Below the pieces are notes generated by a model that was not told the DNA's origin, did no database searches, and saw only the letters and a program-made list of their open reading frames with translations. A DNA stretch of 37,631 bases from Candidatus Avelusimicrobium excrementipullorum (GTDB lineage Bacteria > Elusimicrobiota > Elusimicrobia > Elusimicrobiales > Elusimicrobiaceae), in assembly GCA_019120455.1 (NCBI GenBank), contig DWVB01000002.1, positions 1 through 37,631 of the forward strand, given 5' to 3'. This document shows positions 30,731 through 37,218 of the stretch, one piece after another. Every line of letters begins with the position of its first letter. Within the stretch, counting starts at the first letter, position 1. The translations under genes and the position numbers were made by a program.

Positions 30731-31945
30731 TCAGTCCAAATACTTCTTGGCCAGCTCGTCGTAACGGTTGATGACCTGGCGCACAAAGTGGCGTTTTTCT
30801 ATATAAGTTCCCGGGAAGAACGCTCCTTTAAAACCGGCAATAATGATGTTTTTAAACTCTTTGCGCGTCAGCGGAATATTTTTTACCAGCAGCTCCAGCT
30901 CTTTGCTGACGTTGGTGTTGGACACCAGCCGGTTGTCCGTGGCAATGCTGACCGAAAGCCCGCGCGCAATCATTTCCCGCACGGGGTGTTTGGCCACGGA
31001 AGTAATTTGCGGCAAGGTCTGCAAATTGCTGGTCAGACACACTTCCACGCCGATGCGTTCGCTGGCAATGTAATTGGCCAGCGCCTCCACATAAGCGTTT
31101 TTGTCTTTGACTTTGCGGTCCTTAATCATCCCCGCGTCAAACAAATGCGTGCCGTGACCGATGCGGTTGGCATAGCAGTCCGTAATGGCCTGAAAAATAG
31201 ATTCGGGCCCGTACGCTTCGCCTGAGTGTACGGTTTTGCGCATAAAATGTTTATGCACGTATTTATACGCTTCCACATGGTCGGAAGCCGGATAGCCGGC
31301 TTCTTCACCCGCCAAATCAAAGCCCACTATGGGCAGTTTTTCTTCCCGCACCAGCTTGACCACCAGCCGCGCCAGTTCCAGCGACGCCGCGCCAAACACT
31401 TCAAACTTGGAATATTGCGACAGTACGCTGAACAGCTTTTTATAGTACGGTGACATGTTGGCGTTAAAACTGCGCATGGCGCAGGTTATTACGCCGAAAT
31501 AAAACGGCAAATCTTCCCCTTTTTTGACGGCGGGCAGGGCATTGTGTTCTTTTTGCGCGCGGCGCAGGCCGGCCACCACGGCGCGCACGGCGTCAGCCAC
31601 GGTCAGTTTATCCCCCGCGTGCAGCTGCGGGGCAAAACGGACCTCTATGTAACGCACGCCTTCGGCGGCGGCGTCCTGCCCCAGCTCATAGGCGATACGT
31701 TCTATGTTCTCCGCCGAACGCATAACAGCGGTGGTGTAATCAAACCCCTTTAAATATTCCGTCAGGGAGTTATATTGTTTTTTAAATACTTTTTCGCGCA
31801 GGCCCTTTTCGGTATATGCGGGCAGCTCCACGCCGTCTTTCTGCGCCAGTTCAATCAGCGTGGACAGACGCAGGGAGCCGTCCAGGTGTACATGCAGGTC
31901 CGCTTTGGGAATAAGGCGTATAAATTCGGCGTTTATTTTTTTCAT
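30731..31945 (-). CDS. add: Adenosine deaminase family protein
   Basis: A 404-residue metal-dependent hydrolase that would deaminate adenosine (or a related aminopurine) to inosine. Zinc ligands His18 and His20 are in ADLHVHLDGSL; the catalytic HSGEAYG segment and NRIGHGTHLF are present. The late metal Asp lies in IATDNRLVSNT, where the second Asp of the E. coli-type TDDP is Asn; I recall this TDN form from some other bacterial members. The start overlaps cysS by four bases (ATGA), and it is the last gene of the YacL-ispDF-cysS operon. Purine salvage is the likely role. Confidence 0.88.
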   Translation of the reverse strand: MKKINAEFIRLIPKADLHVHLDGSLRLSTLIELAQKDGVELPAYTEKGLREKVFKKQYNSLTEYLKGFDYTTAVMRSAENIERIAYELGQDAAAEGVRYIEVRFAPQLHAGDKLTVADAVRAVVAGLRRAQKEHNALPAVKKGEDLPFYFGVITCAMRSFNANMSPYYKKLFSVLSQYSKFEVFGAASLELARLVVKLVREEKLPIVGFDLAGEEAGYPASDHVEAYKYVHKHFMRKTVHSGEAYGPESIFQAITDCYANRIGHGTHLFDAGMIKDRKVKDKNAYVEALANYIASERIGVEVCLTSNLQTLPQITSVAKHPVREMIARGLSVSIATDNRLVSNTNVSKELELLVKNIPLTRKEFKNIIIAGFKGAFFPGTYIEKRHFVRQVINRYDELAKKYLD

Positions 31946-36174: not shown

Positions 36175-36341
36175 CGCGCTGTATGTCTGTGTTACAGCAT
36201 TCACGGGAAAACGCGGCACAAATCTTTTGGCCTGAAAGGGCCGGCAGTAAAATTCTCTGTGTGTATAAACCTTTTTCAACGGATTTTATTGCAGCGGCAA
36301 AAGCCTCCCGAAGAAAAACCGGAATTTGATATCATATATAT

Positions 36342-37208
36342 ATGATTTTGGAAGGAAAAACCCTGGCCGCTTCTTTGCGTGCGCCGCTGGCGCAGCGCGC
36401 CGATGCCGTACGACGCAAACTGGGCAGGCCGATATCTCTTTTTGCCGCCGGATCCACGGAGGATTACGGCGCGTATGTCTATTTAAAAAAAGAGGTGCAG
36501 GCCGCCGAAAAGCTGGGCGTACGCACACGGGTGCATGAACTCAACAACGCCACACGCGCGGAAGAGTTTTTAAATTTATTGCAAAAAGTATCCGCCGATC
36601 CGGACATTGACTCCATTTTAATTCCGCGGCCCCTGCCGCCGGCGCTGGCGCAAAGCGGATTTACGCGGTATATTGCGCCGGAAAAAGACATTGACGGCAT
36701 GTCCAACACGGCCATGGGCAATTTGTTTTTATGCAAGAGCTGGCAGGACGTGCAGGCCCTGCCTACTTTTGTCCCCTGCACGGCACTGGCGGTTATCCGC
36801 CTGCTGGACGCGCACGGGATAGACCCCCAGGGCATGGAAGCCGCCGTCATCGGCCGCTCTCCCACCGTGGGCCGCCCGCTGGCGCATTTGCTGACCTGCC
36901 GCAATGCCACGGTAAAAATTTGCCATACGTTTACGCGGGATTTGGCCGTCTCCCTGCAAAATGCGGATTTAATCTGCGCCGCCGCCGGACAGCCGGCCCT
37001 GCTCCATGCCGGAAACGTCAAAAAGGGCGCAACCGTCATAGACATCGCCACCAATTTGGACAAAGACGGCCGCCTCTGCGGCGATGCCTGCACCCAGCAG
37101 CTGCTGGACAAAGGCTGCCGCGTTTCCCCCGTTCCCGGGGGAGTGGGGCCCGTAACGCTTGCGTGCCTGCTGGAAAACATTATATTATCTGGGGAAAGAA
37201 AGATTTAA
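36342..37208 (+). CDS. folD: FolD-like methylenetetrahydrofolate dehydrogenase/cyclohydrolase
   Basis: A 288-residue FolD of normal length, interconverting methylene-, methenyl- and formyl-tetrahydrofolate. The N-terminal domain has the YVxxK motif with catalytic Lys49, the KDIDGM segment and a reduced PCTALAV where most have PCTPxG. The NADP domain has GRSPTVGRP and the end has PVPGGVGPVTLACLLENI. The usual VQLPLP strand reads IPRPLP, so the catalytic Gln is replaced by Pro95. No Shine-Dalgarno precedes the ATG, which follows an AT-rich stretch, so translation may be leaderless or start by another route. A lipoprotein gene follows ten bases later. Confidence 0.92.
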   Translation: MILEGKTLAASLRAPLAQRADAVRRKLGRPISLFAAGSTEDYGAYVYLKKEVQAAEKLGVRTRVHELNNATRAEEFLNLLQKVSADPDIDSILIPRPLPPALAQSGFTRYIAPEKDIDGMSNTAMGNLFLCKSWQDVQALPTFVPCTALAVIRLLDAHGIDPQGMEAAVIGRSPTVGRPLAHLLTCRNATVKICHTFTRDLAVSLQNADLICAAAGQPALLHAGNVKKGATVIDIATNLDKDGRLCGDACTQQLLDKGCRVSPVPGGVGPVTLACLLENIILSGERKI

Positions 37209-37218
37209 AGGAGAAAAT

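What the first reader, a model, noticed from the sequence alone, without database searches (positions are those of the whole stretch)
36342..37208. FolD with a changed active-site strand and no ribosome site
The family strand VQLPLP reads IPRPLP, so the Gln used in cyclohydrolase chemistry is Pro95, and PCTPxG is PCTALAV. Lys49, KDIDGM and the NADP motifs are kept. The enzyme may be dehydrogenase only or use different residues. The start lacks a Shine-Dalgarno while the following gene has a strong one.
Basis: partly seen in the sequence, partly recalled or inferred. Interest (0 to 1): 0.5.

Follow-up and report, generated by a model that had tools for sequence, protein, structure and literature searches.

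The report
Likely dehydrogenase-only FolD, leaderless gene
A gut bacterium's folate enzyme has lost the amino acids usually needed for one of its two reactions, and its relatives carry a separate gene that probably does that reaction instead; the gene lacks a ribosome site probably because its message starts right at the start codon.

Summary
The gene is an intact, single-copy FolD of a gut Elusimicrobiota genome. In published assays, E. coli FolD K54N has no detectable cyclohydrolase but about 19% dehydrogenase; Q98H about 1% and 8%.

In 178 tabulated genomes of the phylum, FolDs with Lys54 or Gln98 changed co-occur with the FchA/cyclodeaminase domain (FTCD_C) in 139 of 144, against 4 of 34 with both intact. 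This genome has one stand-alone FTCD_C gene and no Fhs match. Best reading: FolD is only a dehydrogenase and the FTCD_C protein makes 10-formyl-THF. By tree, that protein groups with C-domains of fused FTCD, not with the stand-alone genes found beside folD and fhs elsewhere in the phylum.

The start is probably leaderless: an extended -10 element ends 6-9 nt before the ATG in 42 of 44 genus members read.

Monofunctional FolD plus FchA is known from Clostridium perfringens (recalled), so this is a variant of a known kind. No activity was tested.

The parts
36342..37208 (+). folD, 288 aa, predicted monofunctional 5,10-methylene-THF dehydrogenase
   Evidence: AlphaFold2 model mean pLDDT 94.4, full-length superposition on FolD structures, best Z 37.6, rmsd 1.6 over 280 residues
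36327..36335 (+). extended -10 element TGATATCAT; its hexamer TATCAT (36330-36335) ends 6 nt before the ATG, predicting a leaderless transcript
   Evidence: motif at this place in 42 of 44 genus members read
36486..36488 (+).
36489..36491 (+). Lys50 codon, aligns with E. coli Ser53, invariant in 61 of 61 family FolDs read
36492..36494 (+). Glu51 codon at the place of catalytic Lys54 of E. coli FolD, Glu in 61 of 61 family FolDs read
36624..36626 (+). Pro95 codon at the place of Gln98 of E. coli FolD, Pro in 51 and Ala in 10 of 61 family FolDs read
36693..36695 (+). Asp118 codon, equals Asp121 of E. coli (pterin binding), kept in 61 of 61
36774..36794 (+). PCTALAV (145-151) instead of PCTPxG; the Gly145 equivalent is Ala or Ser in 144 of 144 FolDs with changed Lys54/Gln98 and Gly in 34 of 34 intact ones
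37207..37213 (+).

Best explanation
The protein is a FolD that oxidises 5,10-methylene-THF to 5,10-methenyl-THF with NADP (inferred from kept Tyr47, Asp118 and cofactor motifs) but does not hydrolyse methenyl-THF, because the catalytic Lys is Glu51 and its partner Gln is Pro95 (residues shown, activity inferred). The hydrolysis to 10-formyl-THF is done by a separate stand-alone FTCD_C protein encoded elsewhere in the genome (presence shown, activity inferred). The product mainly feeds methionyl-tRNA formyltransferase, since the genome shows one formyltransferase-type gene and no PurH or Fhs match (searches shown, use inferred). The gene is read from a leaderless transcript that begins at or next to the ATG (motif conservation shown, start site inferred).
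For: Register and residues. Glu51 is invariant in 61 of 61 family FolDs read, which looks selected rather than drifting. E. coli mutants, passages seen in PMC5688156: K54N no detectable cyclohydrolase, about 19% dehydrogenase; Q98H about 1% and 8%. PMC9173628 (passages) quotes a human K56E mutant assayed as dehydrogenase with KM over six-fold raised. FTCD_C present in 139 of 144 genomes with changed Lys54/Gln98 and in 4 of 34 with both intact; by family 10 of 11 against 2 of 13, Fisher p 6e-4. Own FTCD_C at G000:C41:9551-10078: best PDB relative is a methenyl-THF cyclohydrolase (7vg4, E 1e-14); PGGG and three Asp/Asn positions conserved in the 32 other domains of the set are kept in 12 of 12 family stand-alone copies. 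No histidine ammonia-lyase match in own and 12 other genus genomes searched, present in 8 of 8 sister-family genomes, so FTCD_C is kept without that route of histidine breakdown; G128 and G179 carry a fused FTCD with a urocanase-like gene on the same contig and a stand-alone copy as well. G019 has FTCD_C but no formiminotransferase match. In other families of the phylum FolD with Lys54 to Gln lies beside an FTCD_C gene, with Fhs in the same run in G002. No PurH match, one Formyl_trans_N gene in a 326-aa frame, SHMT present. Leaderless motif: 44 of 61 family starts against 1.0 expected from single-base shuffles, and in the window found at folD only.
Against: Silkworm MTHFD K53A and Q97A kept cyclohydrolase kcat/Km near wild type (0.097 and 0.22 against 0.13; PMC6443876, section 16 read), so loss of these residues does not abolish it in every FolD. 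In E. coli Q98H also cut dehydrogenase to about 8%. Lys50 is invariant and could supply an amino group. Four genomes with intact FolD also carry FTCD_C, and two with changed FolD show neither FTCD_C nor Fhs (G071; G149, 79% complete); three more (G122, G214, G240) have Fhs but no FTCD_C match. Genomes of one family are not independent points, and all changed FolDs fall on one side of a split (93/96), so the number of independent events may be small. The FTCD_C protein is far below NCBIfam's FchA cut-off (96.7 of 275 bits) and groups with C-domains of fused FTCD, which would suggest cyclodeaminase. The promoter pattern was chosen after seeing the sequences.
Confidence: 0.66

Rival explanations
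1. FolD is still bifunctional with relocated residues: invariant Lys50, one place earlier in the same helix, takes over from Lys54 with Glu51 as its partner, and the FTCD_C protein does something else.
For: Lys50 and Glu51 are both 61 of 61; silkworm mutants lacking the classical Lys or Gln kept cyclohydrolase.
Against: A one-residue helix shift turns the side chain away by about 100 degrees (general knowledge); K54N in E. coli abolishes the activity; FTCD_C co-occurrence.
Confidence: 0.14
2. FolD is dehydrogenase only and nothing replaces the cyclohydrolase: spontaneous hydrolysis of methenyl-THF covers the small need for initiator-tRNA formylation, and FTCD_C is a cyclodeaminase working with the separate formiminotransferase.
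For: E. coli FolD mutants with no detectable cyclohydrolase are viable, which the authors put down to spontaneous turnover; no PurH match in 13 genus genomes; a stand-alone formiminotransferase is present; the FTCD_C protein groups with fused FTCD C-domains.
Against: E. coli K54N grows very slowly. Formimino donors from histidine are not expected without histidine ammonia-lyase. G019 keeps FTCD_C with no formiminotransferase match. The stand-alone FTCD_C and formiminotransferase have different tree places.
Confidence: 0.14
3. 10-formyl-THF is made by another route, so both FolD and FTCD_C are side issues.
For: Formiminotransferases can handle 5-formyl-THF (recalled); the MAG is 93% complete, so a gene could be missed.
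Against: No Fhs match in any of the 46 genus genomes; a FolD match in all 46 and an FTCD_C match in all 46.
Confidence: 0.06

Closest known systems
Bifunctional FolD / MTHFD (E. coli FolD, human MTHFD1 and MTHFD2)
   Same: Fold, both Pfam domains, Tyr50 and Asp121 equivalents, cofactor motifs
   Different: Lys54 is Glu51, Gln98 is Pro95, Pro143/Gly145 are Ala; reaches at most about 61% of the cut-off of any of the 25 NCBIfam models shown
Clostridium perfringens monofunctional FolD with FchA and Fhs (Aluri et al. 2016; title seen in the reference list of PMC7219735; content recalled, paper not held)
   Same: A FolD predicted to lack cyclohydrolase plus a separate FTCD_C-family protein
   Different: No Fhs match here; whether the substitutions or the FolD clade are the same was not tested, as that sequence was not fetched
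E. coli FolD mutants K54N and Q98H (carolacton resistance, PMC5688156, passages)
   Same: Same two positions changed; dehydrogenase kept in part, cyclohydrolase lost or nearly so
   Different: Laboratory single mutants; here both positions are changed and fixed in a family, to Glu and Pro or Ala
FchA, methenyl-THF cyclohydrolase (NF045657, PDB 7vg4), and the cyclodeaminase half of FTCD (1tt9, 1o5h)
   Same: The partner protein belongs to PF04961 and keeps the set's conserved residues
   Different: Falls among C-domains of fused Elusimicrobia FTCDs, apart from the stand-alone proteins of Bacillota and other families (99/99; no assayed FchA was in that tree)
Yeast MTD1, monofunctional NAD-dependent dehydrogenase (1edz)
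   Same: Fold (Z 28.7); lacks cyclohydrolase (recalled)
   Different: 21% identity over 268 residues; NAD-dependent

Membership tests
FolD superfamily (PF00763 + PF02882) | Both domains over the gathering score | tested here: met
   72.0 and 163.5 bits against 32.8 and 27
Bifunctional FolD (dehydrogenase/cyclohydrolase) | Catalytic Lys in YxxxK (E. coli Lys54) | tested here: not met
   Glu51; 61 of 61 family FolDs read have Glu
Bifunctional FolD (dehydrogenase/cyclohydrolase) | Gln98 in VQLPLP | tested here: not met
   Pro95; Pro in 51, Ala in 10 of 61
Bifunctional FolD (dehydrogenase/cyclohydrolase) | Tyr50, Asp121 and NADP-binding motifs | tested here: met
   Tyr47, Asp118, GRSPTVGRP, PGGVGP
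Bifunctional FolD (dehydrogenase/cyclohydrolase) | NCBIfam model cut-off reached | tested here: not met
   30 models match; the 25 shown are all under cut-off, the top one 222.7 of 421 bits
Bifunctional FolD (dehydrogenase/cyclohydrolase) | Cyclohydrolase activity | not testable with these tools
   needs an enzyme assay
Monofunctional FolD with separate cyclohydrolase | FTCD_C/FchA protein in the same genome | tested here: met
   G000:C41:9551-10078, 1.7e-43, over cut-off
Monofunctional FolD with separate cyclohydrolase | Dehydrogenase activity without cyclohydrolase activity | not testable with these tools
   needs an enzyme assay
FolD-FchA-Fhs module of clostridia | Fhs present | tested here: not met
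   no PF01268 match in G000 (MAG 93% complete)
FchA (NF045657), for the partner protein | Equivalog cut-off | tested here: not met
   96.7 of 275 bits
FchA (NF045657), for the partner protein | Tree place with FchA | tested here: inconclusive
   groups with fused FTCD C-domains (99/99) and apart from stand-alone proteins beside folD/fhs, but no assayed FchA was in the tree
Leaderless gene | -10 element whose distance puts the start of transcription at the ATG, conserved, no Shine-Dalgarno | tested here: met
   42 of 44 genus members read, spacer 6, 7 or 9 nt; pattern chosen after seeing the sequences
Leaderless gene | Mapped transcript 5' end at the ATG | not testable with these tools
   needs 5'-end sequencing

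The most novel reading that the evidence does not exclude
A whole family of gut bacteria makes 10-formyl-THF with a dehydrogenase-only FolD and a stand-alone cyclohydrolase that arose from the cyclodeaminase half of the FTCD enzyme, separately from classical FchA. More widely, FolDs with Ala or Ser at the Gly of PCTPxG, annotated as bifunctional, would be a hidden dehydrogenase-only class recognisable by that motif, and insensitive to carolacton where the Lys is lost.
Probability: 0.35. Interest if true: 0.6.

Novelty: new variant of a known kind. Interest (0 to 1): 0.45.

Why it matters
FolD genes are usually annotated as bifunctional. The co-occurrence found here, together with a simple motif that separated all 144 changed from all 34 intact FolDs in the table, offers a rule for predicting from sequence which organisms need a second gene to make 10-formyl-THF. 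It would also predict natural insensitivity to FolD inhibitors that bind the Lys, such as carolacton, and make the conversion of a histidine-degradation domain into a core folate enzyme testable.

Tried and rejected
Reading Lys49 as the catalytic Lys (Tyr45-Val-Tyr-Leu-Lys49): it would need a two-residue insertion in helix 42-57 and residue 49 is variable. Second FolD copy compensating: no match in this genome. Fhs compensating: no match. The stand-alone FTCD_C and formiminotransferase being the two halves of one split FTCD: rejected, they sit in different parts of their trees. Counting three independent losses of the catalytic residues: not claimed, because all intact FolDs form one side of a split (93/96); that one group mostly keeps Lys and another keeps Gln only suggests separate losses. 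A -35 element for folD: none by the simple scan.

Led nowhere or weak: the hutH query was cut in the wrong frame and is void; only its hutU part is used, and urocanase was recognised by eye, not by a search. The plasmid search gave only matches under 60% identity. Paper searches for Elusimicrobium with folate or FolD and for the mutants K56Q/Q100K and K54S found no paper on those points; the C. perfringens paper is not held. Rows not in the co-occurrence table: of the 247 genomes, 179 were read and 1 (G134, contig cut before the Lys) was dropped, leaving 178. Not read: 2 of 64 own-family genomes (G074, G156), 2 of 24 f7 genomes (G150, G213, whose only FolD match is of the second kind), G124 (no FolD match) and 63 of 76 f12 genomes (6 of them without a FolD match); no f12 genome has an FTCD_C match, so unread changed FolDs there would weaken the association. 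The model coordinates could not be read, so no distances in the active site were measured. Of the 31 window starts, the first has no upstream sequence and three (galE, lepA and, by one base, the last gene) were placed wrongly. For G232 the second FTCD_C place is not shown, so it is not counted as having a stand-alone copy. After this check I lowered the novel case from 0.40 to 0.35, because no assayed FchA was in the tree.

Full report
WHAT IS THERE. The window ends in an intact 288-codon folD gene (36342-37208) with both FolD domains and no second FolD match in the 1.41-Mb, 93% complete genome. Of 35 related loci in named genomes, 28 are Elusimicrobia or unnamed bacteria close to them, several with titles naming deer, yak or buffalo gut samples, and 7 are Bacillota.

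ACTIVE SITE. Aligned without a gap from residue 43 to 59 to E. coli FolD and in a set of 104 distinct FolDs, Tyr47 equals Tyr50, Glu51 equals the catalytic Lys54, Pro95 equals Gln98, and Asp118 equals Asp121. The sister family typically reads YVKRK where this family reads YLxKE, so the register is firm. Across 61 family FolDs Glu51, Lys50, Tyr47 and Asp118 are invariant, residue 49 is not, and position 95 is Pro (51) or Ala (10). The predicted structure is confident (mean pLDDT 94.4) and superposes end to end on solved FolDs (Z 37.6, rmsd 1.6 over 280 residues).

WHAT THE CHANGES DO ELSEWHERE. In E. coli, K54N has no detectable cyclohydrolase and about 19% dehydrogenase; Q98H about 1% and 8%; such strains live, which the authors put down to spontaneous hydrolysis (PMC5688156, passages). 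A human K56E mutant was assayed as a dehydrogenase with raised KM (PMC9173628, passages). Against this, silkworm K53A and Q97A kept cyclohydrolase kcat/Km near wild type (PMC6443876, passages, section 16). Two structure papers give the Lys an acid-base or proton-transfer role in the cyclohydrolase (PMC3368264; PMC3338484; passages). From recall only: E. coli K54S is reported to keep dehydrogenase and lose cyclohydrolase, and C. perfringens FolD is reported monofunctional with FchA doing the second step.

A SEPARATE CYCLOHYDROLASE. The genome has one FTCD_C match, a stand-alone gene (189 aa, contig C41). Its nearest solved relative is a methenyl-THF cyclohydrolase (7vg4, E 1e-14), then FTCD. 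All 64 own-family genomes sampled have FTCD_C. In the 178 tabulated genomes, FolD with Lys54 or Gln98 changed goes with FTCD_C in 139 of 144, and with FTCD_C or Fhs in 142 of 144; with both intact FTCD_C is present in 4 of 34. By family the counts are 10 of 11 against 2 of 13, p 6e-4. The 7 Bacillota relatives have both positions changed in this alignment, and all 7 of their genomes have an FTCD_C match. The Gly of PCTPxG is Ala or Ser in 144 of 144 changed and Gly in 34 of 34 intact FolDs. In a tree of 75 FolDs the intact ones form one side of a split (93/96), so these counts are not independent events. Within the changed side, one group mostly keeps Lys54 (f2 36 of 36, f7 17 of 22, f8 4 of 4; Gln changed in all), another keeps Gln98 in part (f13, f20, f21, f25; Lys to Gln), and the window's family has lost both.

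WHERE THE PARTNER CAME FROM. In a tree of 44 FTCD_C domains, the family's 12 stand-alone proteins lie inside the group of Elusimicrobia FTCD fusion proteins (99/99), apart from a second group that holds stand-alone proteins of Bacillota and of f13, f19 and f20 and a second kind of fused FTCD. No assayed FchA was in the tree, and its root is a midpoint, so the descent from FTCD is an inference. In sister-family genome G057 the fused FTCD lies on the same 18-kb stretch as histidine ammonia-lyase and a urocanase recognised by eye. The own genus has no histidine ammonia-lyase match (0 of 13 genomes) yet keeps FTCD_C. G128 and G179 have a fused FTCD with a urocanase-like gene on the same contig and a stand-alone gene too. 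This argues for a job outside histidine breakdown; cyclohydrolase is the obvious one, but no activity was shown. The stand-alone formiminotransferase has a different tree place, so a simple split of one FTCD is not the story.

WHAT IT FEEDS. SHMT is present, MTHFR, PurH and Fhs gave no match, and a single Formyl_trans_N gene in a 326-aa frame, fitting Fmt, did. I infer a short line: serine carbon to methylene-THF, FolD to methenyl-THF, FTCD_C to 10-formyl-THF, Fmt to formyl-methionyl-tRNA.

THE MISSING RIBOSOME SITE. In 42 of 44 genus members read a TGnTAnnnT element ends 6, 7 or 9 nt before the ATG; in the family 44 of 61 against 1.0 expected from single-base shuffles; in the window it was found at folD only, among 31 starts listed, four of them unusable. 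Sequence upstream of the element varies between species. This is what a leaderless transcript would show; the pattern was chosen after seeing the sequences. In the two genus exceptions (G215, G241) the start follows a stretch ending in the codons for KIDEE, like the LepA end in this window, with AGGA in one and AGGAG in the other.

VERDICT. Probably a dehydrogenase-only FolD with a separate cyclohydrolase, a variant of a known arrangement, with an unusual likely descent of the partner enzyme. Shown: residues, conservation, gene content, trees, promoter motif. Inferred: activities, flux, descent, transcript start.

Noticed in passing
L241-L249 (second FolD-like genes of f7 genomes): A divergent FolD-like gene with Ile, Val or another residue at Lys54, FYP in place of QLP, and DNRxG or ENRxG in place of GGVG; in G150 and G213 it is the only FolD match.
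   Followed up: partly
G124 (f9, 100% complete): Neither a FolD nor an FTCD_C nor an Fhs match in a complete-looking genome.
   Followed up: no
G000 and 12 other genus genomes: No PurH match in any of 13 genus genomes searched, so probable purine auxotrophs; the window holds an adenosine deaminase (30731-31945, -), which would suit purine salvage.
   Followed up: partly
G106:C56, G057:C48, G045:C13, G086:C42, G082:C35, G030:C7: In the sister family a PurN-type formyltransferase and PurH lie in one open frame of 725-773 aa, a probable PurN-PurH fusion.
   Followed up: no
G002:C46:58784-62015: Fhs, FTCD_C (FchA-type) and FolD (Lys54 to Gln) genes in a row on one strand.
   Followed up: partly
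L066, L068-L071, L075: In several genus members folD starts right after a frame ending in the LepA-like sequence KIDEE, whereas in the window lepA lies about 5.7 kb upstream.
   Followed up: no
G168:C9:824-1345: A sister-family genome with both a fused FTCD and a stand-alone FTCD_C that is sister to the own family's copies (87/90), hinting at an early duplication.
   Followed up: partly
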